From the IMG/VR virus record IMGVR_UViG_3300045964_000112, positions 1-23,817 of that record: DNA of 23,817 bases; one strand, 5' to 3'. Shown piece after piece: positions 4,093 through 23,817 of the stretch. A program made the translations under genes and the position numbers. A model generated the notes under the pieces. That model had not been told where the DNA came from, made no database searches, and was given only the letters and a program-made list of their open reading frames with translations. Positions within the stretch are counted from its first letter, which is position 1. Every line of letters begins with the position of its first letter. The DNA comes from a virus.

Positions 4093-4434
4093 TCACATGC
4101 GCCCGTCACGCCGGCGGCAGGCGCAGGCCTGCACAGGGTCGTGGCACTGCGGACAGAGGCCGCTCGCCTCGAGGCGTGGGAGAGTGATCGGCGCCGAGCG
4201 CCGTTGCGACCCGCGCCACGCGGTCTGTGGACGACGCGCCGGCCGCGCCCCTGGGAGTCGCGGCGCGCGTGTGTTGGGTGTCGACGGCGGTCGTGTCTGA
4301 GACGTCTGAGACTTATCGGTCGTCGGGGTTGGCGGCTGGCGCAACTCGTTTCGAAGGTCCGCGATCTCCTGCACGAGGCGCTTGGCGATCTCCTCCAGGC
4401 GAGAAAGGCGACGGTCGGCGTCGGCGCGATTCAT
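4093..4434 (-). CDS. Coiled-coil early protein with C-terminal Cys cluster
   Basis: 113 residues: a heptad-like coiled coil (about 5-33, RRLSRLEEIAKRLVQEIADL), a Pro/Thr/Arg-rich disordered linker (34-88) and a tail CPQCHDPVQACAC (94-106) that could bind zinc. The linker includes SQTSQT, encoded by two tandem GTCTGAGAC units (plus strand). The ATG at 4434 overlaps the exonuclease TGA (ATGA). Its position between exonuclease and initiator suggests a role in recombination or replication, but no family is recognised. Confidence 0.66.
   Translation of the reverse strand: MNRADADRRLSRLEEIAKRLVQEIADLRNELRQPPTPTTDKSQTSQTRPPSTPNTRAPRLPGARPARRPQTAWRGSQRRSAPITLPRLEASGLCPQCHDPVQACACRRRDGRM
4295..4312. 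repeat. Tandem GTCTGAGAC 9-mers
   Basis: Two perfect copies of GTCTGAGAC in tandem, inside the linker-coding part of the coiled-coil gene. Related 9-mers recur in an intergenic position at 10203-10229. Confidence 0.8.
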
Positions 4435-5264
4435 GCGGCCCTCCGCATCGGCGACAACCCGCCCCGCCCTTCGAGAATGCGCGCACCGGCGGCGTGAACC
4501 TCGCGCGCGAGCACGAGATCGGCCGTTTGGTAGTAGGCGGCGATCGCCGTGACCGGCGCGAGCTCGGCGCAGAAGGCGCGAATCAGCCCGTCGTACCACG
4601 CGATGTGCCGCTCGTCGCGCACGACGCGCAGGACGTGGAGCCGCTGACTCGCCGGCAGGCGATCGTCGAAGCTGACAAAGTCGCACCACGACGCGTTGGT
4701 CAACCAGAGCGCGTGCGTGATCTGCGCGCGGTAGTCACGCGGGATGCACTTGTGGCCCAGGCCGTAGGCGAGGTGGGCCAGGGTGTTGGGCGCTTTCACT
4801 TCGACGACGCCGTCGAACTCGCCGACGTGGCCGTCGAGCGAGGCACCGGCCGGCAGTGTCGGGTGCGCCACAAAGCCGGTGCTCTGCACGGTGTAGCCGG
4901 CGCGCGCCGCGTAGGCCTCGAGGGCTGGTGCCTCGAGGAGACGGCCGCGGCGCATCGCGCCGCTCTCGAAGCGTGAGCCGTGCGGACGGCCGGTGAGGGA
5001 CTCGCGTACCAGTTGCCACAGGTAGTCGCGACGCGCGGTGGACTGAAAGAGCCCCAGCCGCTTGCGCGGCAGGAGGAAGTAGGCGCCCGTCCCGGTCACC
5101 CGGCCGACACGCAGGTCCTGCCACGCCGCCGAACGTTGCGCGACGTGATGGACGATGGGCGGCGGTTGCAGGGTGAGGGGGGCTGGGCCGTCGAAGTCGA
5201 AGCGGAGCGTGCGATCGGTCAGGCTATACGCCAGGGAACTGACGACGTCGGGCAGTGGGGGCAT
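4431..5264 (-). CDS. YqaJ/lambda-type phage recombination exonuclease
   Basis: 277 residues. The order QRSAAWQDLRVGRVTGT (43-59), GRLLEAPALEAYA (107-119), ASLDG (141-145) and EVKAPN (155-160) is that of the PD-(D/E)XK fold in YqaJ-type viral recombinases, with E111, D144, E155 and K157 as likely catalytic residues and RAQITHALWLT following. The enzyme resects double-stranded ends to give 3' single strands for annealing during phage recombination. The ATG at 5264 has AGGAGG about 12 nt upstream, somewhat far. No RecT/Bet-type annealing protein is recognised among its neighbours. The family call is confident. Confidence 0.88.
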   Translation of the reverse strand: MPPLPDVVSSLAYSLTDRTLRFDFDGPAPLTLQPPPIVHHVAQRSAAWQDLRVGRVTGTGAYFLLPRKRLGLFQSTARRDYLWQLVRESLTGRPHGSRFESGAMRRGRLLEAPALEAYAARAGYTVQSTGFVAHPTLPAGASLDGHVGEFDGVVEVKAPNTLAHLAYGLGHKCIPRDYRAQITHALWLTNASWCDFVSFDDRLPASQRLHVLRVVRDERHIAWYDGLIRAFCAELAPVTAIAAYYQTADLVLAREVHAAGARILEGRGGLSPMRRAA

Positions 5265-6652: not shown

Positions 6653-6949
6653 ATGCTGCGTGTGATTCTGACGTGGGTCGGCGTCCAGATCGCCTACCTC
6701 GTGCTGCAGGGAGTCGTAGGGTGGCTCGTCACCAGACCACGGCCGTCGCTGCTGCTTGTCGCCGGCGTGATCAATGCGGTCACCCTCTCCTGTCTCTTCG
6801 CCATCGCTGACGAACTGCGCGCCAGCGAGATCACCGTGTCCAGCCTCGTGTACGTCGGCCTCTTGGGGTACTTAACCGTGAGAGCTCTGGTGCTCGGATG
6901 GTTCGCACTGGTGGCGATCCGCGGCGCGGAGCCTGACACGGGTCACTGA
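6653..6949 (+). CDS. Small membrane protein with three predicted helices
   Basis: 98 residues starting MLRVILTW, with AGGGGG before the ATG. Hydrophobic segments at about 3-26, 31-52 and 61-90 give two or three membrane spans with short polar loops and few charges. An in-frame GTG at 6617 would add 12 residues but is weaker. It lies in the lysogeny region between repressor and integration cassette, a usual place for superinfection-exclusion or lysogenic-conversion genes; that role is a guess from position. No family recognised. Confidence 0.68.
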   Translation: MLRVILTWVGVQIAYLVLQGVVGWLVTRPRPSLLLVAGVINAVTLSCLFAIADELRASEITVSSLVYVGLLGYLTVRALVLGWFALVAIRGAEPDTGH

Positions 6950-6992
6950 AACAAACGGGTTCCGAACGGAGACGCGGCCCTTGATCCCCGAC

Positions 6993-7022
6993 TTAGCACG
7001 TATATACGTATGTGGTATATAC
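6993..7022 (+). promoter_or_regulatory. Promoter with palindromic GTATATAC operators for the BrnT-remnant cassette
   Basis: TTAGCA (6993-6998) and TATATA (7016-7021) are 17 bp apart. ACGTATATACGT (6998-7009) is a perfect 12-bp palindrome, and its core GTATATAC (7000-7007) recurs at 7015-7022 over the -10. Two dyads spaced 15 bp apart over a promoter suit autoregulation by a ribbon-helix-helix antitoxin. Transcription would start near 7028, at most a few bases before the GTG at 7030. Confidence 0.6.
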
Positions 7023-7029
7023 TGAAGTC

Positions 7030-7110
7030 GTGGTGTTCGAATGGGACGCCCGAAAGGCGGCCCGCACCGCGCCCTTTAGAAAGTTGGTATCGGCGACGAG
7101 GGCATTATGA
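7030..7110 (+). pseudogene. brnT: Remnant of a BrnT toxin gene, first 26 codons
   Basis: The 26-residue reading begins V-V-F-E-W-D-A-R-K-A-A, closely matching the conserved start of BrnT ribonuclease toxins (family pattern xFEWDxxKAxxN). It then loses resemblance (RTAPFRKLVSATRAL) and stops, whereas BrnT is normally about 90 residues, so the catalytic part is absent. The stop overlaps the ATG of the next small gene (ATGA). It could now act only as a leader peptide for translational coupling. Identification rests on a short motif plus the BrnA-like gene downstream. Confidence 0.6.
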
Positions 7111-7283
7111 CGGACAAGGAACGGGAGATTGTGCGCCTGCTGTACGACTTGGAACTCGAGTTGTTTCACGAGCAGGGTGAGGCCATTGCCGGCCTCCGGC
7201 GGGCGCTGGAATCCACCCAGCGCTCGCACGAGATCTTGGGCCGCCTGCTCAAGGCGACGGGTGAGCTGATGGGAGTGAGTTGA
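7107..7283 (+). CDS. 58-residue helical protein replacing the toxin body
   Basis: 58 residues (MTDKEREIVRLLYDLELELF at the start), predicted to be two amphipathic helices or a coiled coil with dense Leu/Glu/Arg heptads. The ATG overlaps the BrnT-remnant stop, and GAGG lies just upstream. It occupies the position where the rest of a toxin would be, 9 bp ahead of the BrnA-like antitoxin gene. No family recognised; it might be a new partner of the antitoxin or an unrelated insertion. Confidence 0.6.
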   Translation: MTDKEREIVRLLYDLELELFHEQGEAIAGLRRALESTQRSHEILGRLLKATGELMGVS

Positions 7284-7292
7284 CGTACCGCC

Positions 7293-7829
7293 ATGAAGAA
7301 ACGATCCGCATCGTCTCGGTCCGGCGGGCGCGTGATTCGGAAAAAACGCGCTATCACCAAGCGCGCACCGGCCCTCTCCGTTGAAGAATTTGATCGCCTG
7401 GCCGACCTGCCGGCCGACGATCCCGCCGGCGACTTGACGCCGCACCTGGACTGGTCGAAGGCGCGGCGGCCCGCGCGAGCCGCCAAGAACGCGCGGTCTA
7501 CCATCGTGCGCCATCGTCTGACGTCCACTAGGCTCGCGCGGCAGGCCGCCTTGCAGCCGATCCCGCACGTCCCCGACGCGGCGATCGACTTCTCAGACAT
7601 CCCAGAGGCCACGCGCGAACAACTCGCGCAGTTCCGCCGCGCGTCCCTCGGGCGGCCGCCGATCGGATCGGCCACGCGCCAGGCGATCTCTATCCGTCTC
7701 GATCCGGCAGTTCTCCGCGAGTTGCGCGCCGAAGCGACGCGGCGCGGTGTGGGCTATCAGACCTTGCTGAATGATGTGCTCGCGGGTGCGGTTCTCCGTT
7801 TCCGCCAGGACCGAAAAGCGCACCGATGA
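7293..7829 (+). CDS. brnA: Composite antitoxin: CopG-antitoxin-like N-terminus, BrnA-like C-terminus
   Basis: 178 residues, about twice the usual BrnA size. Residues 28-58 (SVEEFDRLADLPADDPAGDL, then LDWSKARRP) resemble the acidic N-terminal toxin-binding region of CopG-type antitoxins. Residues 92-170 follow BrnA: AIDFSDIPEATREQ, then AISIRLDPAVLRELRAEA and GVGYQTLLNDVLAGAVL, a ribbon-helix-helix DNA-binding domain. It is predicted to bind DNA as a dimer and repress the cassette promoter. No intact toxin gene lies next to it. Its TGA overlaps the integrase ATG, so int expression is coupled to it. The BrnA-like call is good; the fusion reading is moderately sure. Confidence 0.75.
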   Translation: MKKRSASSRSGGRVIRKKRAITKRAPALSVEEFDRLADLPADDPAGDLTPHLDWSKARRPARAAKNARSTIVRHRLTSTRLARQAALQPIPHVPDAAIDFSDIPEATREQLAQFRRASLGRPPIGSATRQAISIRLDPAVLRELRAEATRRGVGYQTLLNDVLAGAVLRFRQDRKAHR

Positions 7830-9082
7830 CCACGACGGGTCCCGGCCGCGAGGTCCTGGTTGCCCCCAACATCTATCGCGCCATTGGGCAGGGCACCGCC
7901 GATCAGCCGCTCGGACGCTGGCGTGTGTACGTGCGTCGCGACGGCCGCAAGCGAACGAAACGCTTCCCGAAGGACTACACACTCGGGCACGTGCAGACGT
8001 GGATCGACGGCTATAACCAGGAGACGCAAGACCTGCGCGCCGCGCGCGGCCTCAGCGACGCGGAGTACGCCCGCACGTTTCCCGCCGACGTCGACACGTA
8101 TCTCGCGCTGAAACAGGTGAAGGCGATGCCGAGTTTTCGCTCGCGCGAGATTCAGTTGACGAAGTGCGCGACGCGGTTTCGCCGGCGATGCCGTCCCGAC
8201 ATCACCACAAAGGACCTCAACGAGCTCCTCCAGGGCTTCATCGACCGTGGCTACTCCGGGTCCTATGTCAACAAGATCCGCAACGCGCTGATGTCCCTCT
8301 GGACGCGGCTCGATGGGCGCAGCGCCCCGAACCCGGTGAAGGACACCAAGCTCTATCCCGAAGCGCCCATCGAAGCGCGCGGCGCCTCCTACGACATCCT
8401 CCGCAAGATTCTCGCGGCGGTGCCGGATCGCAGCCGACCGATCAAAGGCGTGAAGGGCTCGCGCGACCGCGGCTCGGTGTCGAAGGCGCGACTCGAGGTG
8501 TTGGTGTGGACGGGGATGGACCCGGCGGAGTTGCGGCGGATGGGTCCAGAGAACGTCAACCTGGCGGAACGCTGGTACACGGTGCCGCACCGCCGGAAGG
8601 GCACCCCGACGCGCTTTCCTGAGCCCCTCGTGCGCAAGCCGATGACCGACGAGTCACAGGCCGCGTTCGAACGGTGGGTCGCCTTCAACGATTGGGGGGT
8701 GGCCTTCAGCACCGACGCGCTGCGACACACCTGGCAGCGCGCCGTCACGAAGGTCGAACGGAACCTGCGCAAGACGCGTCGCGACACGCGCCTCTCGCTG
8801 GCACGCATTCGACGACTGAAGGACATCCGCCACTCGTTCGGCACCGAGCTCTCGATCCAGACGGAGGGCAACCTGGGCCTGGTGGGCGAGATGCTCGGGC
8901 ACCGCGACAAGCGGACCACGCGCCGCTATCAGATCGGCGCCGTGCCCGTGGTGCTCGCCGCGGCGATGGCGAAGTTCGAAACGGCGACGAAGAAGACGCG
9001 GAAGACGAGAGGACGGGGTACCAACGCCCAGAAAGGGTACCGGTACCCCCCACACGTTTCGCCCCGTCATCGACCGACGTAG
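7826..9082 (+). CDS. int: Phage tyrosine integrase with atypical catalytic residues
   Basis: 418 residues. N-terminal arm-binding region 25-75, SAM-like core-binding domain about 90-165, catalytic domain about 180-390. In the expected box pattern R-K-H-R-H-Y the protein shows D232 (TGMDPAEL) in place of the first Arg, K258 (RRKGT), K332 in place of the first His (LKDIRH), R335, H359 (MLGHR) and Y368 (RRYQ). Thus the nucleophile, second Arg and second His are kept, but two positions differ. It likely integrates the phage at the tRNA-Arg site immediately downstream. The ATG overlaps the antitoxin stop (ATGA). The Lys/Arg-rich C-terminus overlaps GGTACC repeats that may be arm sites. Confidence 0.9.
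   Translation: MTTTGPGREVLVAPNIYRAIGQGTADQPLGRWRVYVRRDGRKRTKRFPKDYTLGHVQTWIDGYNQETQDLRAARGLSDAEYARTFPADVDTYLALKQVKAMPSFRSREIQLTKCATRFRRRCRPDITTKDLNELLQGFIDRGYSGSYVNKIRNALMSLWTRLDGRSAPNPVKDTKLYPEAPIEARGASYDILRKILAAVPDRSRPIKGVKGSRDRGSVSKARLEVLVWTGMDPAELRRMGPENVNLAERWYTVPHRRKGTPTRFPEPLVRKPMTDESQAAFERWVAFNDWGVAFSTDALRHTWQRAVTKVERNLRKTRRDTRLSLARIRRLKDIRHSFGTELSIQTEGNLGLVGEMLGHRDKRTTRRYQIGAVPVVLAAAMAKFETATKKTRKTRGRGTNAQKGYRYPPHVSPRHRPT
9015..9051. repeat. Clustered GGGTACC elements, left of att core
   Basis: GGGGTACC (9015-9022), GGGTACC (9035-9041) and GGTACCCCCC (9042-9051) lie at the end of int. The last is the exact reverse complement of GGGGGGTACC at 9234-9243 on the other side of the att core. 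They may be integrase arm-type binding sites. Confidence 0.45.
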
Positions 9083-9151
9083 CCCAACGCCACCCGTCGC
9101 GTGAGCGGCCGGTTTTCGAGGGGATTCCGGCGGGAAGTGCGAGGTTTTGAC

Positions 9152-9198
9152 TGGCGCGCCCGGCAGGATTCGAACCTGCGGCCTTTGGCTCCGGAGGC
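9152..9198 (-). other. attP: attP core: 3' half of a tRNA-Arg(CCG) gene
   Basis: On the minus strand the segment ends in CCA (9154-9152), preceded by discriminator G, acceptor 3' strand CGGGCGC, a perfect T arm (GCAGG, TTCGAAT, CCTGC), a 5-nt variable region, and an anticodon loop CTCCGGA with anticodon CCG (9194-9192). Beyond 9198 the match fails: the distal anticodon-stem pairs, D arm and 5' acceptor strand are missing, so it is not a functional tRNA. Integrases of this family often use tRNA 3' halves, so that recombination rebuilds the host tRNA. Lying between int and the lysis module, with phage genes on both sides, it is read as attP. Confidence 0.85.
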
Positions 9199-9561: not shown

Positions 9562-9963
9562 CTAGCGCGTGCTGGTGCCGCCCGGCGCACTGCGATCGGC
9601 CGCCGTGGTCGTCGTGTTGCGCGCCCCGCCCGACTGCGCCGCCTGGGTGAGCATCGACGCCATCCCGTGCGACGAGAACTGCTCCGTCATTTGGCCGAGC
9701 CATTCGTCGCGCGCCGACCCCTTAAACGTCGAGCTCACGTTCTGCAGCGCCGGAATGATCGCCGGGTTCTCACTGAGCACGCGCGCCGGCAGGCGCAGGT
9801 CGAGCCGGCCGTTTCCCTTGTAGTTGCCGAGCGTCCGGTTCCACTCGGTGGCGTCCTCGCCGCGCAGCAGCGTCCCGATGTGCTCGAGCGCGCTCCGCAC
9901 TCGCGTGTCCGTCGCGTGGTCGCCGTCGACGTGCATGGTCAGGTACCAGTTGGTGTCGGGCAT
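9562..9963 (-). CDS. Hypothetical late phage protein
   Basis: 133 residues from the ATG at 9963, with a strong ribosome site (GGGAGGGAG). N-terminal NWYLTMHVDGDHATDTRV is probably beta-strand followed by helix; the middle (RLDLRLPARVLSENPAIIPA) is ordered, and the last 30 residues are Thr/Ser/Gly-rich and disordered. No family recognised. It is the last gene of the leftward late operon before the attachment region, so it might be an accessory lysis or virion protein. Confidence 0.68.
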   Translation of the reverse strand: MPDTNWYLTMHVDGDHATDTRVRSALEHIGTLLRGEDATEWNRTLGNYKGNGRLDLRLPARVLSENPAIIPALQNVSSTFKGSARDEWLGQMTEQFSSHGMASMLTQAAQSGGARNTTTTAADRSAPGGTSTR

Positions 9964-9989
9964 AGAGCTCTCCCTCCCAACCGGGCATC

Positions 9990-10193
9990 TTACGACGAGG
10001 AGGCCGACCGACGGGCCGCGACGAGGCGGTGCCCCGCTCGGGCGCGTGCCCGCCGGCCGGATAGTACGCTCCCCCTGACCAGGCGCGTGGGCGCATCGTA
10101 GCCCAACGCCCGCCGGGTCGCACGCCGGTCCGGCAACGGGTCCAGGTGATCGGAATAGCTCGCCGGGTCGGCGTTCTCGAGGTCATCCAGCAT
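9990..10193 (-). CDS. Small late protein, tentative
   Basis: 67 residues, MLDDLENADPASYSDHLDPL at the start, then a basic Arg/Ala/Ser-rich second half. It fits neatly between the endolysin stop (41 bp upstream) and the next start (26 bp downstream), which favours it over a longer Arg-rich frame in the same place. The ribosome site is poor, and no family is recognised. It could be non-coding. Confidence 0.42.
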   Translation of the reverse strand: MLDDLENADPASYSDHLDPLPDRRATRRALGYDAPTRLVRGSVLSGRRARARAGHRLVAARRSASSS

Positions 10194-10202
10194 GGCAGGG
10201 GT

Positions 10203-10229
10203 GTCGCAGACGTCTGCGACGTCTCAGAC
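10203..10229. repeat. Three tandem GTC(N3)GAC 9-mers between late genes
   Basis: GTCGCAGAC, GTCTGCGAC and GTCTCAGAC follow each other without a gap; the first two make an 18-bp perfect palindrome. They lie right after the endolysin stop and belong to the same 9-mer family as 4295-4312. Confidence 0.75.
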
Positions 10230-10234
10230 AGGGG

Positions 10235-10714
10235 TCAGTAGCGGGACCAGGCGCTCGCATACGAGCTCGCCCACTTCGCGCGCCGCGGGCGGCCCGGTTT
10301 CCACGCCGCTTCGTACTGCTGCCAGCCCAGGTCGGCATCGTTGCGCGGCGGGAGCGGGAAGGGGAGCGTCCAGAGCGTGAGGCGCGCACACGCCGCGGCC
10401 AGCACGTCGTGGTGCTCGAGCAGCGCGTGAATGCCGCGGGCGTCGAGCGCGGGGTAGTGCAGCGCCTGGACGACGCGCCGGAGCGCCGGCCCGGTCGTCG
10501 GCCGCTGGAGCAGGTCGGTGATCGCGATGAGCTCGAACTGCCAGTAGCCGCGCGCCGGCCCGTCGCCGTGCTGGCGGCGCGCCAGGAAGTCGGACTCTTG
10601 CAGCCCGATCGCCAGGACCAGCGCGCGCGCAGCGTCACTGTCGGTGTCGGGCGCCAGCAGTGAGAAGGCGGCCGGCAGGGTATAGCGCGCGTGGTAGTCG
10701 AGGCCGGCGCTCAC
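10235..10714 (-). CDS. Lysozyme-like/transglycosylase-like endolysin
   Basis: 159 residues. LVLAIGLQESDF (32-43), then RRQHGDGPARGYWQFE (46-61), follows the pattern of phage muramidase-like proteins in which the Glu of the QES motif (E40) is the general acid and the GYWQFE strand lines the active site. It would cleave peptidoglycan at the end of infection. No signal peptide, so release would depend on the neighbouring membrane protein. The GTG at 10714 overlaps the stop of that gene (GTGA), with GAGG upstream. A virion-associated transglycosylase is the alternative, but the lysis-cassette position favours endolysin. Confidence 0.78.
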   Translation of the reverse strand: MSAGLDYHARYTLPAAFSLLAPDTDSDAARALVLAIGLQESDFLARRQHGDGPARGYWQFELIAITDLLQRPTTGPALRRVVQALHYPALDARGIHALLEHHDVLAAACARLTLWTLPFPLPPRNDADLGWQQYEAAWKPGRPRRAKWASSYASAWSRY

Positions 10715-13840: not shown

Positions 13841-15411
13841 TACCAGGTCACCTCGAGCACCAGGTAGGCGCGCGTGAGCGAGGTGATCGAATCGACGGTG
13901 ATGCCGAACACGTCGCCGGCGCTGAACGACGTCGTCCAGCCCGTGAGCGTCGAGCTCGAGGCCTGCACGCCGCTACTGAGCGTCGGCTTGGCGCTCGCCG
14001 TGATCGTGTCGGCGATCGTCGGCGGGTAGTTCGGCGCCGTGTCCTTCCAGATGTCGAAGACGATCGAGCCGGTCGTGATGCTCGGATCGGCCGAGAACAC
14101 CCACCACTTGGTGATGGTCCCGGCGCGCGGCATCGGCGCGCTCACGCCCTTGAAGCCGGTCGTGATGGCGGCGGCGCCGGCGCCGTCGATCTGAAAGAGC
14201 AGCGTACTGGTGCCCGCGCCCCCGGCCGGCGCCGCCCAGGTACCGTCGCCGCGCAGGAAGTGTGCGGTGTTGTTATCGAGTTTCGGGAGCAGCCCGTGCG
14301 CCGACGTCGAGGCATTGAGCGTCGTGACGTCGGTCGGCGCCGCGAGCTCGTCGAGCCGGATCGGATCGGCGCCGCCGCTCTTGTGCCGGCTCGCGTGGAT
14401 GAGCGGCGCGTAGCGCGCGTCGGCCTCGGCCTCGGTGATACCGCCAGGCGCCGACGTCGACGCCCCGACCTGGAGGGAGACGTTGTCGATGTAGAACCCG
14501 ATCGCGCCGCCGAAGTCCTCGACCTGGATCTGCGTGGCGGTCGTGCCGAGCGGAATCGCAAACGCGGAGACGGGGATCGCGACCTGCTGGTAGGCGGTCG
14601 TGACGGTGGAATCGAACCCGTAGGTGCCGGTGCGCCGGATCTGCACCGTGGCGCCGACGAGCGTCCCGCTCGCGCGGAACGAGACGAGCAGCCCGCGACT
14701 GGTGTTCCAGGCGCCCTTGCTGCGAATGAAGAAGACCAGGGCGTCGTAGTCGTTGGGCTCGATCGAGCCACTGCCAATCGTGCCGCGCGCGTAGACGCCG
14801 GCGGCGACGTTGGTGCCCTCGATCGTTTTCGTCCCCGTGTGCGGGTTGGTCGTCGAGTTGACGTTGAGGGACGCGCCGCTCGCGGTCCAGTTCCATTCCG
14901 TCGGGGCGCCGGCGTTGTCGGTGTAGAGCGTGACCGTGGTCGCGCCGGCCGGCGCCGTGGCGCCCGCCGGGACCGAGACGATCGCGAGCTTGACGTAGCT
15001 CGCCGGGTCGACGGTCGGCTCGCTGGCGGCGGCCGCGGCGGTGCCCGTCACCTTGTCGACCGTGCCCGTGGTGTCGAGCACAATCACGTCGATGCGCGGG
15101 TCGCTCGGGTCGGCGGCGTCGAGCGTGATCGTTTGCTCGGCGCTGTCGTAGCGCGTGCCGTTGATCTGATAACTCGCGGCGCTCACGCGGAACGTGAACC
15201 CCGACTCCCACACGACCTGGCCGCCGCTAATCAGGAACGTGTTGAACGTCGACCCAGAGCTCGGCGGCGGCGTCGTCCCGCTCGCGGTGAGCGTGCCATC
15301 GAGTTCGAGGCCGTCGCCGATCGGCACGACCTTGACGCGGCCGGCGCTGTCGGTCACCAGGACGCCGTTGGGCCGCGCGCCGCCCTGAATCGCGATCGCC
15401 CGACTACTCAC
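13840..15411 (-). CDS. Tail fibre protein with carbohydrate-binding-like module
   Basis: 523 residues from the GTG at 15411, which overlaps the stop of the giant gene. Residues 1-150 resemble a fibre base domain (FNTFLISGGQVVWESG, then RIDVIVLDTTG). Residues about 165-315 look like a jelly-roll sugar-binding module (ending GAIGFYIDNVSLQ). At 334-348 is HASRHKSGGADPI, a motif frequent in phage tail fibres, and near 385 LRGDGTWAAP, a common fibre repeat. A beta domain of about 130 residues ends the protein. It lies between the giant virion protein and the spike, as expected of an adsorption module. The frame is open further upstream, but that part is a shadow of the giant gene. Confidence 0.8.
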   Translation of the reverse strand: MSSRAIAIQGGARPNGVLVTDSAGRVKVVPIGDGLELDGTLTASGTTPPPSSGSTFNTFLISGGQVVWESGFTFRVSAASYQINGTRYDSAEQTITLDAADPSDPRIDVIVLDTTGTVDKVTGTAAAAASEPTVDPASYVKLAIVSVPAGATAPAGATTVTLYTDNAGAPTEWNWTASGASLNVNSTTNPHTGTKTIEGTNVAAGVYARGTIGSGSIEPNDYDALVFFIRSKGAWNTSRGLLVSFRASGTLVGATVQIRRTGTYGFDSTVTTAYQQVAIPVSAFAIPLGTTATQIQVEDFGGAIGFYIDNVSLQVGASTSAPGGITEAEADARYAPLIHASRHKSGGADPIRLDELAAPTDVTTLNASTSAHGLLPKLDNNTAHFLRGDGTWAAPAGGAGTSTLLFQIDGAGAAAITTGFKGVSAPMPRAGTITKWWVFSADPSITTGSIVFDIWKDTAPNYPPTIADTITASAKPTLSSGVQASSSTLTGWTTSFSAGDVFGITVDSITSLTRAYLVLEVTW

Positions 15412-18400
15412 CGTCGTAGCCCTCGCGGTCGTAGCCGAACGCCATCGCGCGCAGCAGGCCGATCTCGAGCTCGCCCTCGGACCACGCCTTGTACGAGCGC
15501 CAGGCGCGCAGCGCCGCGCCGGTCGGCAGTTGCAGGAACGCGCCGCCGATCGAGACGCCGCCGGCGCCCGCTTCGCCCAGGACCGCCATGTAGTCCTCGT
15601 CGTTCCAGGCGCCGACCACACGCTTGGCCGTGTCGCCGAAGGTCGCGATCGGGCGCGTGCCTGGCGGGCCTTCGTAGCCGAAGACGCTGCCGGCCGCCTG
15701 CCAGCCGTCACGCACGAACAAGGTGGTGCCGGCCATCGCCATGCCCACCTCGAAGAGGAACCGCTCGTCGTCGTCGTCGTCGCCCAGGTCGCCGCGCGTG
15801 CCCTCACGCACGAGCGTGATGATGGCGGGGCCAACCAAGAAGAGGAACGCGAACTGCGCCGCGAGCTCGCCGCTCGCTTTCAGCTTCGAGCCGCCCGTGC
15901 CGACGTCGCGTCGGCTCTTGTGCATCTGCTCGGTCCACAGGTTGTAGGTCGCGAGCATCGGCCCGAAGAACGTGGTGAACAGTTTCTGGAACTCGTCGCC
16001 GCGGAGCACCTCGGCCTGGTAGGCCGACTCGCCAGAGGCCTGCGTGTCGCGCACGACCTGGTTGCCGATCGCGATCGCCGTCGCCTCGTCCTTGCCCTGC
16101 TTGAGCGCCTGGTCGCGCGCGGCCGTGTAGGCGACCGCGTCGACCAGCGACTGCATCTTGGTAATCATCGCGAAGAACCCGCGCTGGGCGTGGGCGTAGG
16201 TGACCCGGTCGCGGAACACCTTGCGCGTGATCGCGTCCATGCCGATCTCGAACTGGCCCTGGTGTAACCCGACGCGCTGCGCGAACTCGTGAATCTCGCG
16301 GTTGATCGTTTGCGGCCGCGTCCGCATGAAACTCGACTCGGCGCGGATCTGTTTCAGGCGACTCTGGCCGCCGAGCACGCGCAGCGCCGCGGCGAGTGTG
16401 CGCACCGGGCCGACGCGCGCCATCACGTTGCCCAGGCCGGCGACCTGGAGCAGCGGCGTGACGAAGTTGAGGCCCAGGCCGACGACCTGCGAGCCGCGCC
16501 GCATCGTGTTGACGAACCCGGAAATGTCTTTGTATTCCTGGTGCTCGCCGACCGCGATATAGCGGAGGCTTTTGCGAATCGTCTCGAGCGGCTTGTCGCC
16601 ATGCACGGCGTGGATCGCCTTCGCGAGCTCGCCGCGCGGGTTGAGGATCCGGCCGACGTCAATGATCGCTTCGTGCATCGCAATCGCGTGAATGACGTCG
16701 TTCAGGTGTTCGGGAATCACGCCGAAGTCGAGCCGCACCGCGCGCGACACGTTGCCCTCGGCGCGCTGCTTCTCATGCCCGCGGCGCACGGTCGTCGCCA
16801 TGTACGCGGTGTTCTGGTGCAGGAGGCCGACGCCGGCGTCCTCATGCGCCGCGGCGATCGGGCTCGAGGCCGCCTCGAACTTGATGGGGAAGTAGCCGCC
16901 GCGCAGCGTGCGGGGGGTGCCGCCGACGTTGACGGTGAAGGGCTCGGCCTCGACCTTGTCGGCCGCGGACCCCTGGATCCGTTTCATCTTCTTGGCCGTC
17001 TCGTCCCAATAGCTGTCGATGTGGACCCACACCCCTTCGACCCAGTCCCAGTCGCGGGCGTCGAGCGACTCGAGGATCGCCGTGTAGGTCGGCTCGCCCC
17101 AGCCGTGGCCGTCGCGCATCCGCTGTTTGTTCGTCGCGTTGCCGGAATTGAGCGCGACCATGAGGCGCGCCATCTTCGAGAGGCGCAGCCCGGTACCTGG
17201 CACGAGCGCGAGCGCCTGCATCGAGAGCTGCTCGCCGCCGGTGTAGTGCGTATTGAGGTGGTCGACGAAGAAGGTCGTCGCCGTGCCCATCATCGCCGCT
17301 TTGGTTTCGAGCGCCTCGTTCAGCGGCCGCATGAGGTACTGCCAGAGCGGCCCGTGCGAATAGCCGTCCATCTCGAAGATGAGCGACGAGAGCGTGCGGT
17401 GCCCCAGCACCCAGCCTTTCCGTTTGCGGTTGCGCTGCTCCTCGGTGCGCCGCGGCTCGAGGACGACGCCGCGCGGCCGCGGGCCGACCTGTTCGACGTG
17501 CGTGGCGAGGTCGCCCTGGAGCGCCTCGAGGTCACGCGTCGCCTGCGCGGTGAGCAGCTTGTCCTTCAGCCGTCCCAGGTGGACGAGCGCCTTCACGCCG
17601 TCGCCGACGCCGTCGAGCTCCTCGACGGTGAGCTCGCGCCAGTGGATCCGCCGCGCGTCGTCCTTCACCTCGTCGGGGATGTGGTCGGTCGGCACGCCCT
17701 GCTGCGCGAGCTCCTCGAGATAGGCGCGGAGGGACTGCCGGCGCGAGAGGTCTTTGTTCGAGACGCGCCGGAACTCGTACCGCTCGAGCACCTGGTCGAT
17801 CTGGTCGAGCACGCCGGCCTTGCCCAGGCGGCCGCGCAGACGTGACGACGTGTCGAGTTGCCGCATCTGCCGCTCGATGCGCTCGCCCCGATCGACGGCC
17901 TCGAACGCCGCGCGCGCGAGCTCGAGGGCGAAGAGCTCCTGGCGCTTCGCGGCGATCGCGCCGGCGCGGTCGTTCTTGCCCCAGGCCTCGAAGGCCTGGT
18001 GACTCGCGCGCGCCGCGGCCGCCCGGTACTGGGCGGGGTGCAGGTCGCGCACGCGCGTCTTCGCGACGGCCTGCTGCGCGGCCAGGCGCGTGACCCTCGG
18101 GTTGGGAATCGCCGCGGCCGCCATGTTCTTGGTCAACATGGCGAGCTCGGCGGAAATGACCTTGCGCCGCTGGTCGGTCACCGCGGCCTTCGCCGCGTCG
18201 GCCAGCGAGAACTTGTCGAGCATCTGCGTGCCGTGCCGCTCGAGCATCCGCTTATCCGTCTCCGCGGCGATGACGGCGTTGAGCGCCGGCGTCACGACGA
18301 GCGCCTCGAGCAACGTCTCCGCGTCGGGGAAGCCGGTGAGCGTAGCGACGATGGCGGGGTCGCTGCCGCCGGCGCGCGTGTAGAGATACGGCCGGGGGAG

Positions 18401-21400
18401 GCGGTCGAGCATCTCGCGCCCGAACTGCTGGACGATCGCGTCCTTCGAGAGCTTGATGGGTGTGCCGTCACTGAACGACGGGTCAGTCCCGTCGGGCAGC
18501 TTGCCCGTGCGGATCACACTCTGTGCGACAAACGCCGGCTGGGCGTTGAACTCGCCCCGCACCTCGCGTTCGACGAGCTCGCGTTTGGCTTTCCAGTCGG
18601 CCGCCTGAGTCTTGCGCCAGTCGGCCATCACGACCGCGTTGAGCGCCTCGCGCGCTTCCTCGCTCGCCTGGCGCATCGCGGCCTCATGCGCCGCGAACTC
18701 GAGCTCACTCACACCGGCTGTGGCCGCGTTCGAGAAGAGCGGCTTGAACGACCGCTCGCGCTGGGCGGCCGCGATCGCCTCCTCGCTCGCGAACAGCCGG
18801 TCCATGACGCCGCGCACGTCCTCGGGCACGTCGATGCCGCGCCCGGTGAGCGTGCGGTAGACGGCGACGAGCCAACTGCGGAACTTGGAGAACAGCGACT
18901 GGAGCTCGGGCGTCGGCGCCTGGCCCTGGTGCAAATACTCGACGAAGGCCTCGGCCCACGTCTCATGCATCCGGCGTGCGTCGTCGGTCACCTCGAGTGC
19001 CTGGAACTCCTCGAGCGTGCCCGTGAAGCCGATGAACGCGAGCGCCGTCGCTGCATCTGCACGCAGCGCGTGGCCCTCGGGCACCGACACCGCATCCTCG
19101 ACGAGCTCCTCGAGGAACAGGTGCGCGCTCTCATGCAGGAAGGTCGAGAGGTTCGCCTGGCCGGCGATGAGTCGAATAGTCCGTGAGTACTTGTTGAAGC
19201 CGCCGCGGAGGATGCCGCCCTCGTCGCCGCCGGCCGTGTCGGCGTGAGAGAACTCACCGGTGCGGCGTTCGCTCTTCGACGGGCGCACGAGCGTTCCGGC
19301 GATCGCGCCGTCGTAGTAGCGCGCGGAGCCGTTCGTGATGAAGCCGTGGCGGGCGTAGAAGCGCGCGAGCGCGCCTTTCTTGCGTGGCGCCGGCGCCGCG
19401 TCGAGCGACACCGCGAGGTTGTGCGCGTCAGCCCACGCGAGCAGCTGCTCGAGCATGGCGCTGCCGATGCCGTCGTTCTGGCGTGACTGCGGCACCGCGA
19501 TCGAATCGAGCGACAGGTCGCCGCCCTGGCTGATGTGCGCCTCGAGGAAGACGCCGCCGCCGGCGTTGTCGCGGATCTGCTGTGTGAGGGTGTCGAGCTC
19601 CTCGTTGAGCGCGTCACGCTCGGCACCTGTCGGCCACGCGCGTGGCGCGCGCTCGCGTTGTTCGAACTCGCCGCGGCGTGCGTTGAACGCGCGGATCGCT
19701 TCGACTAAACTGTCTACGGATCCAGCGGATGTAGGTCGGGGAGCGGCGGTGCCCTGCCTAGTGGGTGCGTGGTGATCGTCACCGTGCACGGGCGCTGGGT
19801 CCGGCGTGATGACTGGCTCGTCGGGTCGGGTGGCAGGTCCTGCGACGTCTTCCGCCGACGCGGCCGGAGCGGTCCCCACAAAGGACGATGGGTCAGTCGC
19901 ACGCTCCACTTCGATCGCCTCGATTGCGTAGAGGCGGTCGCCGAGCTCGGGTTGCTGCCCGGGCCCCACTTCTTTGGCTGTGATTCTGACCAGACGCACG
20001 AAGCCGTCGCGCACGCGCAACGGCGCATAGAAGCGGTGGAACGCGACGATGGTGTTGTCGGTCGCCTGCCGTGCAGGCGCTGACTCCGCTGGGTTCAGAA
20101 TCGCGCGCTCGAAGAGCTGGTCGATGTTGGCCACGGCGAGAAAGTGATCAGCCCGCGTCGACGACCGCTCGACCACCTTCGGATCGTCGAGCATCTTGTT
20201 GATGCCGTCCCGGGTGAGCGTGGCGCGACGGCCCGAGGGGACGTTAATGAGCGACTTCCCTTGAAGGGTCCTGGCGGCCGCACGCGCCTCGGCCTTGGTC
20301 GACGCGGAGCGACGTGTCGCCTCTCCGAGATGCCAGAACTCGCGCTGTTCGAACTCGCCGCGCTTGGCGCGCGCGCGGGCCTTGGCGGCCTTTAGCTTTT
20401 CGCGCGCGGCTTTCTGCTGCGCGCGCTTGCGCGCCGCGGCGCCGTCGCGTCGGCGCTGACGGACCTCGTCGAGCCGGCGGGCGCTGCGGAGGAGCGCCGG
20501 CGTGACACGATGCGGGCCACGCGATCCCGTTCCGCCTGCTGCCGCGCGATCAGAATCGCGTCGGCGTCGGCGAGCATCTGATCGCGCAAAGACCCTGAGC
20601 TCTTCGCCATAGCCTGCTGCCTCCAGCAACGAGCGGACGTCCGCGTCCGCGGTGAACAAAGTCGCGAAATCCGGCACGCTGGCGATCGCCTCGTCGGTCA
20701 GTTTCCCCGATTTCAGGAACGCTTCGGCGCTGAGGCCCTCGGCCTCCGAGAGCTCATACAAAGTCTTTGCCCAGGACCACACCGTCTCCTGCACGTTGGC
20801 CGCGGTCCACGGCTCGCCGGTCCGGCGCGTGAGCGTCTTCGCAACGCGGCGCACCTTCGCACTAAAGGCGAGATAGCCCGGGGTCTTGCCCGGGTCGGTG
20901 CCGGCGACGTTGCGCGCGCCGCTGCCGAGTACGCCCTCCTCGAGCGCGGCGAAGGTGACCATCCACGAATCGGTCGTGACTTCGTGGACGTAGCCCCACA
21001 GGTTCATCGCGAAGCTGTGAACCTTCGGCCCAGAGAGCACGATGCGGAGCGGGTCCTCGGTGGCGAGCGCGGTGACCGCGTTGTTGCGCCACGAATCCAG
21101 CATGGAGGCCTCGTCGCGTTGGCCCGACATGCTGCGCGCCAGGAGCGCGAGGATCGCCTCGCGGTCGGTGGGACGCCCGGCCTCGAGCCAGTGCTTCCAC
21201 ATGCGGAGCGTGTTCGCGAGGTTGGTTTCGACCTCGGTGCGCGGCGAGAGCGCCGCCAGCAGCGCCGAGAAGCGCACGCTGTCGACCATCCCGAACATGG
21301 CACGGATCGCGGTGGTCGATCGCCCGTACCAGCCTTTCTTGGCGCGGCCGGCGACCGCGACCGCCTCCCAATCCGCGTCACGCGGAATCTCGAGGAACCT

Positions 21401-23817
21401 GTCGACGAGCGCCTGCGCGGTGTCGGCGCGGAGCTTGGCCTGCTCGGCGGGCGTCAGGTGCGGTGCGAGGACTTCGAACCCGTCGGGCGTGTTGCGCTCG
21501 TCGAGCTGGAAGAACTCGCCGCCGTCCTTGTAGATGCCAGCCTGCTGCAGCGGTGACTCGCCGCTCTTCATGCCGCGCGCGAGCTCGGCGTCCCGCGCTT
21601 CCACTTCGGCGAGCGCCGCCGCGTTCACCTCGAAGACGTAGACGGGCGTGGTCGCCTGGCCTTGTGCCCAGGCCGCGGCTGCGCGGTGGTGCCCGTCCAT
21701 CAGGTAGACCTGGCCCTGGTAGCGCACGCCGATCGCGGGCGGGTGAGTCGTCTGCGCGCCGTCGTCAGTCGTCTGCCGCTTCTGCTCGACGATCGCGCGC
21801 ACGACACTCGGCTGCGTGGCGACGAGCTGCGCAACGGGGACCTGCTCGATCGTGGGCCGCTGCGCGAGCGACTGCGCCGCCTGATACAGCTGCTCGGCAC
21901 GGCGTGTGTCGATGCGCGGGAACGGCACCGGCATCACGTCGACGACGTCGCGCTGCTCGAGCTCGTCGCCGAAGTGAATGTCGTCGACGCTGCCCTCGCC
22001 AGTGTCGACGGAATCGGGGGCCTCGTCCTCGGTGTGTTCGCGTAGCGACGGGTCGCCGATCCACAGGCCGCGCTCCCACCACTTCTCACTGATGTCGACA
22101 TCGAGCTCCTCGTGGAGCTCCTGCGTGCCGGGGAGCACATCGTCGGCGGTAGTGCCGCCGGCGGTGTCGGGCCGGCTCGCAACGTTGACCGCTTCGATGA
22201 GCACGTTCAGGTCGTCCTGCAGCCAGGCGTACCCGTCCTCCTGCATCAGCGAGCGGGTCAGGTCGTCCCAGGTGCGGCCGTCGGTACGGACCACGCTCTT
22301 GACGCCGTTGACGTCGTAGTGCGTCTCGCCGTTGACCGTGCGACCGCGGACGCCGTCGATCAGGTCGGTGACGCCGCCCTGGTCGGTGCGAATGCCGCCG
22401 TAGCCGGCGATCGCCGAGAGCAGGGTGCGCGGGTCGTCTTCCGCCTCGCGCTGCGCGGCGACGTTCTCGGCGCGCAGGCGCATCCGGTAGCGGAGCTCCT
22501 CGGCGAGCAGGGCGCCGTCGACCGCGGGGTCGAGCGCCGTCGCGGCGTCGACGACGTGCGTGACGATTGCTTCGGTGTGGGCCGTCTCGCGGGTCTGGCG
22601 CGCCTCGCGCGTTTCGCCCTCGACGCCGCGCGACGGGGGAATGTCGTTGGCGCGCGCGGCGGCCTGCGGGGTGGCGGCGCGCGCCACGATGGGCCGGCCT
22701 TGGGTGTCGGTGATGGTGAAGGCGAACGGCCGCGAGCGATAGAGCTCGAGTGGGTCGACGCCGCGCGCCTGGGCGCGGGTCACCTCGCGCGTGGCGATGT
22801 AGCGCGCGAACGTCTTGGCGAGTTGCGGCGACTCGCCGGCGCTGACCATCTTCTCGAGCACGTCGGCCGCGATCTGCACCGCCGGCGTGTCGGCCTCGCT
22901 CACCGTCTTGCTCTGGTCGGCGAGCGCCTCGACCTCGCGCTCGAGCGCGGCGGCCTCGGCCTGCGACTCGCGGACGTTCTGCTGTTCTGGAGAAAGCCGG
23001 AACTCGTTCTGGAAGAACTGGAAATGTTTGCCCTCGGCGGCGCCGGCAATCTTGGTGACGAAGGTGGCGAAGGGGACTGGCAGGTTCGGGAGCTCCTGCT
23101 GCCGCGCCTCGGCCAGGGCATTCGGGTTGCCGGTGAGCTCCGCGGCGACGACGTCGGGCTGGAGGCCTTCGTGTTGCCAGTACTCGGTGAACGTCTCGAT
23201 CGGCAGGTAGACGGTGTCGACGCCGTTGGCGGTGCCGGCCTGCGCGAGAATCTCGCCGGCGGCCTGCTCCGAGCGTTGCGCGACCTTGCTCGCGGCGACC
23301 GACGCGGCGAGCGCCTGCATGGCTTGCTGGCGCTGCTCGGCGATCGCGACCAGGCGTTCGTGGGCGCGGTGGCCCACGGTGGCGTGGACGCCGCCGGCGA
23401 CGGTGCCGCCGACGAGCCCGCCGAGCAGGCCTTCCTCGAGCATGTCGAGCGCGGTCTGCTTCGCATCGAACGCCTGGCCGGTCGTCGCGGTGGTGGTGAC
23501 GTCGGCGATCGCTTTCTGGAGCGCCTCGGTGATCGCTTCCGCGCGCATCTCCTTGACGCCTTCCTTGAGCGTGCCGGTGAGCCAGGTCGATCGGACCGGC
23601 TGCACCAGGGCTTTCGCGACGACGCGCTCGGCGACCTCGTGGCCCAGCACGCCGGCGAGGCGCTTGCCGATCCCGAAGGGCACCTTCGTGTCGAGCGCGG
23701 CGATCGCCGAGCCGCCCAGGAACGCGCCCAGGCCAATCTCGGCCTCGGGGTCGACCGCGCGAATGTCGGCGACCACTTCGCCGTAGCCGAGCGTGAAGCC
23801 GGGGATCGCGCCGATGA
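15404..23817 (-). CDS. Giant phage polyvalent protein, 5' end outside window
   Basis: The frame is open to the right edge; residues below are counted from the GTG at 23776. Regions in order: Gly/Ala-rich membrane-active-like segments (1-130); a conserved polyvalent N-terminal module (180-270, VDTVYLPIETFTEYW, then NEFRLSPEQQNVRE); ParB/Srx-like domain with DGHHR at 694-698; HhH-GPD-like region 765-1010 (LSGPKV near 914, TTDSW 934-938); Lys/Arg/Ala helix 1070-1135; LPD/barnase-EndoU-like region 1145-1290; GNAT acetyltransferase about 1400-1490 (QNDGIGSAML near 1432); HESAH metallopeptidase motif 1548-1552; long helical region; and an LPD38-like C-terminal region from about 2100, with a late hydrophobic segment near 2640. 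Motifs of the type GEF(F/E)Q precede several domains. Such proteins are thought to enter the host with the DNA. Individual enzyme activities are inferred. Confidence 0.82.
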   Translation of the reverse strand, partial: IGAIPGFTLGYGEVVADIRAVDPEAEIGLGAFLGGSAIAALDTKVPFGIGKRLAGVLGHEVAERVVAKALVQPVRSTWLTGTLKEGVKEMRAEAITEALQKAIADVTTTATTGQAFDAKQTALDMLEEGLLGGLVGGTVAGGVHATVGHRAHERLVAIAEQRQQAMQALAASVAASKVAQRSEQAAGEILAQAGTANGVDTVYLPIETFTEYWQHEGLQPDVVAAELTGNPNALAEARQQELPNLPVPFATFVTKIAGAAEGKHFQFFQNEFRLSPEQQNVRESQAEAAALEREVEALADQSKTVSEADTPAVQIAADVLEKMVSAGESPQLAKTFARYIATREVTRAQARGVDPLELYRSRPFAFTITDTQGRPIVARAATPQAAARANDIPPSRGVEGETREARQTRETAHTEAIVTHVVDAATALDPAVDGALLAEELRYRMRLRAENVAAQREAEDDPRTLLSAIAGYGGIRTDQGGVTDLIDGVRGRTVNGETHYDVNGVKSVVRTDGRTWDDLTRSLMQEDGYAWLQDDLNVLIEAVNVASRPDTAGGTTADDVLPGTQELHEELDVDISEKWWERGLWIGDPSLREHTEDEAPDSVDTGEGSVDDIHFGDELEQRDVVDVMPVPFPRIDTRRAEQLYQAAQSLAQRPTIEQVPVAQLVATQPSVVRAIVEQKRQTTDDGAQTTHPPAIGVRYQGQVYLMDGHHRAAAAWAQGQATTPVYVFEVNAAALAEVEARDAELARGMKSGESPLQQAGIYKDGGEFFQLDERNTPDGFEVLAPHLTPAEQAKLRADTAQALVDRFLEIPRDADWEAVAVAGRAKKGWYGRSTTAIRAMFGMVDSVRFSALLAALSPRTEVETNLANTLRMWKHWLEAGRPTDREAILALLARSMSGQRDEASMLDSWRNNAVTALATEDPLRIVLSGPKVHSFAMNLWGYVHEVTTDSWMVTFAALEEGVLGSGARNVAGTDPGKTPGYLAFSAKVRRVAKTLTRRTGEPWTAANVQETVWSWAKTLYELSEAEGLSAEAFLKSGKLTDEAIASVPDFATLFTADADVRSLLEAAGYGEELRVFARSDARRRRRDSDRAAAGGTGSRGPHRVTPALLRSARRLDEVRQRRRDGAAARKRAQQKAAREKLKAAKARARAKRGEFEQREFWHLGEATRRSASTKAEARAAARTLQGKSLINVPSGRRATLTRDGINKMLDDPKVVERSSTRADHFLAVANIDQLFERAILNPAESAPARQATDNTIVAFHRFYAPLRVRDGFVRLVRITAKEVGPGQQPELGDRLYAIEAIEVERATDPSSFVGTAPAASAEDVAGPATRPDEPVITPDPAPVHGDDHHAPTRQGTAAPRPTSAGSVDSLVEAIRAFNARRGEFEQRERAPRAWPTGAERDALNEELDTLTQQIRDNAGGGVFLEAHISQGGDLSLDSIAVPQSRQNDGIGSAMLEQLLAWADAHNLAVSLDAAPAPRKKGALARFYARHGFITNGSARYYDGAIAGTLVRPSKSERRTGEFSHADTAGGDEGGILRGGFNKYSRTIRLIAGQANLSTFLHESAHLFLEELVEDAVSVPEGHALRADAATALAFIGFTGTLEEFQALEVTDDARRMHETWAEAFVEYLHQGQAPTPELQSLFSKFRSWLVAVYRTLTGRGIDVPEDVRGVMDRLFASEEAIAAAQRERSFKPLFSNAATAGVSELEFAAHEAAMRQASEEAREALNAVVMADWRKTQAADWKAKRELVEREVRGEFNAQPAFVAQSVIRTGKLPDGTDPSFSDGTPIKLSKDAIVQQFGREMLDRLPRPYLYTRAGGSDPAIVATLTGFPDAETLLEALVVTPALNAVIAAETDKRMLERHGTQMLDKFSLADAAKAAVTDQRRKVISAELAMLTKNMAAAAIPNPRVTRLAAQQAVAKTRVRDLHPAQYRAAAARASHQAFEAWGKNDRAGAIAAKRQELFALELARAAFEAVDRGERIERQMRQLDTSSRLRGRLGKAGVLDQIDQVLERYEFRRVSNKDLSRRQSLRAYLEELAQQGVPTDHIPDEVKDDARRIHWRELTVEELDGVGDGVKALVHLGRLKDKLLTAQATRDLEALQGDLATHVEQVGPRPRGVVLEPRRTEEQRNRKRKGWVLGHRTLSSLIFEMDGYSHGPLWQYLMRPLNEALETKAAMMGTATTFFVDHLNTHYTGGEQLSMQALALVPGTGLRLSKMARLMVALNSGNATNKQRMRDGHGWGEPTYTAILESLDARDWDWVEGVWVHIDSYWDETAKKMKRIQGSAADKVEAEPFTVNVGGTPRTLRGGYFPIKFEAASSPIAAAHEDAGVGLLHQNTAYMATTVRRGHEKQRAEGNVSRAVRLDFGVIPEHLNDVIHAIAMHEAIIDVGRILNPRGELAKAIHAVHGDKPLETIRKSLRYIAVGEHQEYKDISGFVNTMRRGSQVVGLGLNFVTPLLQVAGLGNVMARVGPVRTLAAALRVLGGQSRLKQIRAESSFMRTRPQTINREIHEFAQRVGLHQGQFEIGMDAITRKVFRDRVTYAHAQRGFFAMITKMQSLVDAVAYTAARDQALKQGKDEATAIAIGNQVVRDTQASGESAYQAEVLRGDEFQKLFTTFFGPMLATYNLWTEQMHKSRRDVGTGGSKLKASGELAAQFAFLFLVGPAIITLVREGTRGDLGDDDDDERFLFEVGMAMAGTTLFVRDGWQAAGSVFGYEGPPGTRPIATFGDTAKRVVGAWNDEDYMAVLGEAGAGGVSIGGAFLQLPTGAALRAWRSYKAWSEGELEIGLLRAMAFGYDREGYDGE

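What the first reader, a model, noticed from the sequence alone, without database searches (positions are those of the whole stretch)
15404..23817. Virion-type giant protein combining at least six enzyme-like or binding modules
One frame of more than 8.4 kb holds ParB-like, HhH-GPD-like, nuclease-like, GNAT and HExxH peptidase regions, plus an LPD38-like C-terminus. Polyvalent proteins are known, but this combination would deliver a set of host-takeover or DNA-protection activities together with the genome, directly upstream of the adsorption genes.
Basis: partly seen in the sequence, partly recalled or inferred. Interest (0 to 1): 0.7.

Follow-up and report, generated by a model that had tools for sequence, protein, structure and literature searches.

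The report
Phage giant protein with cut-tagged cargo
A short-tailed phage carries a 3,053-residue protein that strings several enzyme modules together between short, repeated amino-acid tags; across many related phages the type of tag matches the type of built-in protein-cutting domain, which suggests that the phage packs its tools as one chain and cuts them apart, an idea that can now be tested directly.

Summary
The frame is real: window 15404-23815 (-), open at the window edge; a near-identical contig gives the full protein, 3,053 aa. It is the orthologue of Bbp10 of Bordetella phage BPP-1, in the same place (tail tube genes, internal virion genes, giant, tail fibre). Layout: conserved N region, a 1.1-kaa cargo slot, then a conserved HExxH zincin plus C-terminal core. 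Slot modules: ParB-like (weak profile), HhH-GPD glycosylase fold (AF2, Z 10.9, catalytic Lys/Asp invariant), LPD3, GNAT. LPD38 is not supported.

What appears new is a tag, [LFY]-x-Q (here ELEQ, EFFQ, EFEQ, EFEQ), at module boundaries. It marks the pre-zincin junction in 45/51 non-redundant relatives (25% expected) and is twofold enriched in homology-masked slots. In an independent set recruited by an ART module, Q tags go with this zincin (34 vs 0 S tags), while S tags (IRFS) go with a different, HExxxH zincin (20 vs 0 Q tags). Tag type follows the carrier, not the ART's ancestry. Most likely the zincin cuts its own chain at Q tags. Cleavage, packaging and injection are inferred, not shown.

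The parts
15404..23815 (-). Giant polyvalent protein (Bbp10 orthologue), residues 251-3053 of 3053; the 5' end lies outside the window
22646..23815 (-). Conserved N-terminal region, part inside the window (full-length residues 251-640; LPD22 at 59-144 lies outside the window)
19256..22645 (-). Variable cargo slot (residues 641-1770)
21953..21964 (-). Q tag 1, ELEQ (residues 868-871), before the ParB-like module
   Evidence: L005 lacks the ParB module between tag 1 and tag 2
21566..21940 (-). ParB-like module (residues 876-1000; DGHHR at 957-961, window 21683-21697)
   Evidence: below the Pfam cut-off
21506..21517 (-). Q tag 2, EFFQ (residues 1017-1020), before the HhH-GPD module
20531..21478 (-). 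HhH-GPD DNA-glycosylase-fold module (residues 1030-1345; DUF7178); Lys1181 (21023-21025) and Asp1199 (20969-20971) invariant
20345..20356 (-). Q tag 3, EFEQ (residues 1404-1407), before LPD3
19961..20299 (-). LPD3 domain (residues 1423-1535), activity unknown
19658..19669 (-). Q tag 4, EFEQ (residues 1633-1636), before GNAT
   Evidence: DNA 23 of 24 nt identical to that of tag 3
19310..19633 (-). GNAT acetyltransferase module (residues 1645-1752)
19244..19255 (-). Junction before the zincin, EFSH (residues 1771-1774): the exceptional junction without Q
   Evidence: pLDDT under 50 over its first 18 residues
18686..19204 (-). Zincin-like metallopeptidase domain (residues 1788-1960; HESAH 1811-1815 = 19121-19135; invariant Glu1868)
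15407..18685 (-). Conserved C-terminal core (residues 1961-3053), phrog_9880; no Pfam domain

Best explanation
The gene makes an internal virion protein of a BPP-1-like podovirus that enters the host with the DNA. The conserved N-terminal region and C-terminal core are the delivery backbone. Between them is a slot filled with exchangeable effector modules: here ParB-like, HhH-GPD glycosylase, LPD3 and GNAT. Short unstructured tags of the form [LFY]-x-Q mark the module boundaries. The zincin at the start of the core recognises these tags and cuts its own chain, in the particle or after entry, so that each module is released as a separate protein. Shown here: the architecture, the tags and their enrichment, and the match between tag class and zincin clade. 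Inferred: packaging, injection, cleavage, the exact scissile bond, and the target of each module.
For: (1) Orthology and gene order: tail proteins, internal proteins, giant, tail fibre; further isolate phages fetched show the same layout. (2) HExxH and a downstream Glu invariant; the Bbp10 region was classed as CLCA_X, sister to the self-cleaving CLCA metalloproteases (PMC3650047). (3) [LFY].Q in 45/51 pre-zincin junctions that share no sequence upstream, 25% in control windows. (4) In homology-masked slots without that junction, [LFY][FYNDE]Q 50 vs 24.3 expected, 0/300 shuffles; versions ending in E, K or N and the reversed version not enriched; Q the most enriched of 20 third residues; L-x-Q top of all gapped pairs. 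(5) Independent ART-recruited set: window-type zincin (Zq) 34 Q / 0 S; HExxxH zincin 0 Q / 20 S (Fisher 2e-16 and 2e-7); nine Zq proteins without a detectable backbone are all Q. (6) Tags agree within a protein in 33/44 pairs vs 0.34 between proteins (0/5000 permutations), though ART copies are no more alike within (0.18) than between (0.19). (7) ARTs 81% identical carry ILFQ in a Zq protein and IRFS in a non-Zq protein; the tag needs 31 changes on the ART tree, 37.8 if shuffled. (8) HhH module: 12/16 Zq vs 6/18 non-Zq (P 0.018). (9) BPP-1: single PBECR1 module (643-729) lies between FDQ606 and FYQ766. (10) BPP-1 capsid proteins uncleaved (PMC3863775); the annotated 'protease' Bbp18 has no Pfam domain.
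Against: No cleavage product, proteomics or infection data. The zincin model matched no solved peptidase (best Z 4.8). This protein's own pre-zincin junction lacks Q (EFSH). N4 virion RNA polymerase, with a zincin, is packaged unprocessed (cited in PMC5512222). Both tag classes were defined after looking at data, and the HExxxH model was seeded within the same set. The test written down beforehand on a second ART family supported Q with Zq (6/8 vs 14/57, P 0.008) but had only one HExxxH protein, so Zq-versus-HExxxH was not decided (P 0.33). Homology breakpoints by BLAST gave tag enrichment only at module ends, not starts. With starred branches only, the ART tree forces just 4 tag switches and 2 independent pairs.
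Confidence: 0.6

Rival explanations
1. The tags are recombination seams. Short conserved linkers let modules be swapped between giant genes by homologous exchange; the protein stays in one piece.
For: Tags 3 and 4 are 23 of 24 nt identical in DNA. L005 lacks the ParB module cleanly between tags 1 and 2.
Against: Does not explain why the tag class follows the zincin clade in phages that share ART modules, why near-identical ARTs switch tag with carrier, or why Q stays fixed while the middle residue varies.
Confidence: 0.18
2. The tags are docking, packaging or spacing motifs, or lineage habits of two groups of giant proteins; the zincin is a host-directed effector or structural remnant and nothing is cut.
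For: N4 virion RNA polymerase is packaged uncleaved although its zincin region is needed for packaging (PMC5512222). All conserved-backbone proteins found in the ART set are of the Q class.
Against: Nine Zq proteins with no detectable backbone are also all Q. HExxH is invariant in all relatives. The related CLCA zincins cut themselves (PMC3650047).
Confidence: 0.17
3. Another protease (host or phage) cuts at the tags, as the prohead proteases of giant phages do at SxE or AxE motifs in ejection proteins.
For: Precedent in phiKZ and SPN3US (PMC5694885).
Against: BPP-1 capsid proteins are not cleaved and no protease domain was found in Bbp18 or its Jess A counterpart. A trans protease would not predict the match to the zincin clade on the same chain.
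Confidence: 0.05

Closest known systems
Bbp10 of Bordetella phage BPP-1 (phrog_9880)
   Same: Same gene order; conserved N region (LPD22), zincin and C-terminal core; about 31% identity over 1,195 residues; Q motifs flank its cargo module.
   Different: 2,052 aa with one cargo module (PBECR1); the window protein is 3,053 aa with four others.
Phage-type polyvalent proteins (Iyer et al. 2017, PMC5512222)
   Same: Several unrelated activities in one chain, a zincin hub, LPD domains, next to virion genes; processing by the zincin was predicted there.
   Different: The word 'linker' does not occur in that paper and none of the passages read names a cleavage site; the tag and its match to the zincin clade are added here.
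phiKZ gp175 / SPN3US gp245 prohead protease processing of ejection proteins (PMC5694885)
   Same: Short motif ending in one fixed residue marks cuts in proteins that enter the host.
   Different: A separate prohead protease does the cutting; here it would be a zincin on the same chain, with tags between effector modules.
CLCA / CLCA_X metalloproteases (PMC3650047)
   Same: The Bbp10 zincin was a seed of CLCA_X; CLCA proteins self-cleave.
   Different: No repeated cleavage tags or exchangeable cargo in the passages read.

Membership tests
Phage polyvalent protein | Two or more unrelated activities in one chain | tested here: met
   LPD3, GNAT, HhH-GPD fold, HExxH domain, weak ParB
Phage polyvalent protein | Encoded among late virion genes | tested here: met
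Phage polyvalent protein | Enters the host with the DNA | not testable with these tools
   Needs virion and infection proteomics
Bbp10 family (phrog_9880) | Homologous zincin plus C-terminal core | tested here: met
   E 4e-260; alignment of 16 members
Bbp10 family (phrog_9880) | Homologous N-terminal region with LPD22 | tested here: met
   LPD22 E 1.2e-11 here and 3.5e-25 in Bbp10
HhH-GPD DNA glycosylase | HhH-GPD fold | tested here: met
   Top seven structural matches are HhH-GPD glycosylases, Z 10.9 to 6.7; Foldseek E only 0.27
HhH-GPD DNA glycosylase | Catalytic Lys and Asp about 18 residues apart | tested here: met
   Lys1181 and Asp1199 invariant in 45 sequences; the assignment as the catalytic pair rests on own knowledge of the family
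HhH-GPD DNA glycosylase | Base excision activity | not testable with these tools
   Needs an assay; a phage base-modifying transferase (8z2n) also matched weakly (Z 5.5)
Zincin metallopeptidase (CLCA_X) | HExxH plus downstream acidic residue | tested here: met
   HExxH and Glu1868 invariant
Zincin metallopeptidase (CLCA_X) | Asp at HExxHxxxD | tested here: inconclusive
   Glu stands there in this protein and in Bbp10, itself a CLCA_X seed
Zincin metallopeptidase (CLCA_X) | Zincin fold | tested here: inconclusive
   No match above Z 4.8
ParB/Srx DNase | Profile match above cut-off | tested here: not met
   ParBc_2 19.0 bits, cut-off 23.6; DGHHR motif present, so called ParB-like only
LPD38 | Profile match in the C-terminus | tested here: inconclusive
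   No hit at E<=1 in 16 cores; none by direct search, but its control did not ring

The most novel reading that the evidence does not exclude
Polyvalent proteins of phages carry a two-class cleavage code: [LFY]-x-Q tags cut by HExxH zincins and [IL]-[RT]-x-S tags cut by HExxxH zincins. Effector modules that move between phages are re-tagged to suit the zincin of their new carrier, so that modules work as plug-in cargo released by self-cleavage.
Probability: 0.4. Interest if true: 0.85.

Novelty: new variant of a known kind. Interest (0 to 1): 0.7.

Why it matters
That zincins process polyvalent proteins was proposed in 2017 without a site. A short tag that can be read from sequence, in two classes matched to two zincin clades, makes it testable with a peptide assay or virion proteomics. 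If true, cutting at tags would split hundreds of unannotated giant phage proteins into separate effectors with known borders, and could show how phages acquire and release new counter-defence modules.

Tried and rejected
LPD38 C-terminus: no support. A prohead protease as the cutter: first idea; set aside because BPP-1 capsid proteins are uncleaved and the annotated 'proteases' have no protease domain. BLAST breakpoints as an independent map of module borders: too fuzzy, enrichment at ends only. Raw enrichment in the N-terminal conserved region: discarded, because those positions are homologous, hence the homology mask. A first zincin-versus-tag table mixed in zincin-recruited proteins; repeated on the ART-recruited set only. 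First regular expression at the junction wrongly counted GFIQF inside the zincin; corrected. Zincin fold by structure search: no match, which shows nothing either way. ParB, zincin and HhH-GPD profiles against PDB sequences: no informative hit. DNA search for close phages: only a tRNA-Arg stretch. ParB alignment scan: two loci only.

Full report
1. The observation. The minus-strand frame 15404-23815 has 2,803 codons without a stop and runs off the window. The window is a whole 23.8-kb viral record. A near-identical contig (L004; one residue differs) gives the complete protein, 3,053 aa. An 81% identical orthologue (L005) has 2,952 aa. In a genome of about 70% G+C long open frames also occur on the other strand, but homology settles the coding strand here: phrog_9880 matches at E 4e-260.

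2. What it is. tblastn finds 42 phage records, led by Caulobacter phages and BPP-1 Bbp10. In L004 the order is tail proteins phrog_394 and phrog_376, a small internal-type gene, an endolysin-family internal protein, the giant, as in BPP-1 bbp14-13-12-11-10; a virion-structural-type gene follows in the window. Part of the N-terminal region resembles virion structural proteins of LUZ24-like Pseudomonas phages. The protein is therefore very probably an internal virion protein; this is inference from homology and position.

3. Anatomy. A 580-residue conserved N-terminal region occurs in 85 of the frames searched; a C-terminal core of about 1,280 residues starts with a zincin-like HExxH domain. Everything between them varies in length from almost nothing to about 2,000 residues. 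In the window protein this slot holds a ParB-like segment (weak), an HhH-GPD module, LPD3 and GNAT. For the HhH-GPD module 45 sequences gave an AF2 model of pLDDT 92.6; its seven best structural matches are 8-oxoguanine and related glycosylases, Z 10.9 downwards, and the expected catalytic Lys/Asp pair is invariant. Foldseek alone was not significant. HExxH and Glu1868 are invariant, but the zincin model matched no known peptidase.

4. The tag. ELEQ, EFFQ, EFEQ and EFEQ stand before the four modules. L005 lacks the ParB module exactly between the first two. Directly before the zincin, in proteins that share no sequence upstream, [LFY].Q is present in 45 of 51, against 25% of control windows; the narrower [LFY][FYNDERKHW]Q in 41 of 51, against 13%. 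The window protein is an exception there (EFSH). After masking homologous stretches and leaving out that junction, [LFY][FYNDE]Q occurs 50 times against 24.3 expected; close control patterns are not enriched. The core shows no enrichment. BPP-1 Bbp10 has one module, PBECR1, between FDQ606 and FYQ766.

5. Tag class and zincin clade. ART modules were used to recruit 149 loci without reference to the zincin. After the ART's conserved end the third residue is Q (ILFQ, ILNQ) or S (IRFS, ITKS) in most cases. With hidden Markov models for the two zincin types, 91 non-redundant proteins fall as follows: window-type HExxH zincin, 34 Q and 0 S; HExxxH zincin, 0 Q and 20 S; neither, 10 Q (several cut off by contig ends) and 27 S. 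Of the 34, nine have no detectable backbone and all are Q. Several tags in one protein agree far more often than tags of different proteins, although the ART copies are not more alike. ART ancestry hardly predicts tag class (31 changes against 37.8 shuffled); ARTs 81% identical carry different tags in different carriers. S tags also recur at other places in S-class proteins. The HhH-GPD module gives the same trend (12/16 vs 6/18, P 0.018). A prediction written down beforehand for a second ART family held for Q with the HExxH zincin (6/8 vs 14/57, P 0.008) but could not compare the two zincins, because only one HExxxH protein turned up.

6. Mechanism. The simplest reading is self-processing: the zincin cuts its own chain at the tags. 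It fits the 2017 proposal that zincins split polyvalent proteins into units (PMC5512222), for which no site was found in the passages read; the relation of the Bbp10 zincin to self-cleaving CLCA proteases (PMC3650047); uncleaved BPP-1 capsid proteins (PMC3863775); and a disordered junction (pLDDT under 50). Steps shown: architecture, tags, co-variation. Steps inferred: packaging, entry, cutting, module targets. Against it: no experiment, no solved-fold match, the exceptional EFSH junction, uncleaved N4 RNA polymerase, classes defined after looking, and few strongly supported independent switches on the ART tree.

7. Known or new. The protein is a larger member of the Bbp10 family, with a cargo set different from that of Bbp10. 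Four literature searches found no description of the tag; the library holds open-licence papers only. Known relatives in function are the SxE/AxE sites of giant-phage prohead proteases (PMC5694885), cut by a different enzyme. I rate it a new variant of a known kind, with the tag-zincin match as the part worth testing.

Noticed in passing
window 9151-9193: 43-bp match (90.7%) to tRNA-Arg genes, 69 bp beyond the end of a tyrosine integrase gene (7826-9082, +); probably the phage attachment site.
   Followed up: no
window 7293-7829 (+): BrnA/CopG-type antitoxin (E 1.7e-11) directly before the integrase; no partner toxin was looked for.
   Followed up: no
window 4431-5264 (-): YqaJ-like viral recombinase domain (E 2.2e-16).
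   Followed up: no
L305-L315 and similar loci: The HhH-GPD module also occurs in phage proteins of only about 550 residues, without a giant backbone or zincin; possibly a free DNA glycosylase or base-modifying enzyme.
   Followed up: partly
L111, L119, L130, L144: Giant proteins with S-class tags such as RSADR, RSTGR, RSPER repeated several times, coherent within each protein.
   Followed up: partly
L006 (BPP-1) 9635-10324; L007 (Jess A) 6810-7574: Genes annotated 'protease' have no Pfam domain and look like acidic scaffold proteins; the annotation is doubtful.
   Followed up: partly
L018 (Limnohabitans phage DC33): The record's taxonomy says Inoviridae, but it carries a giant gene of the podovirus type described here.
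   Followed up: no
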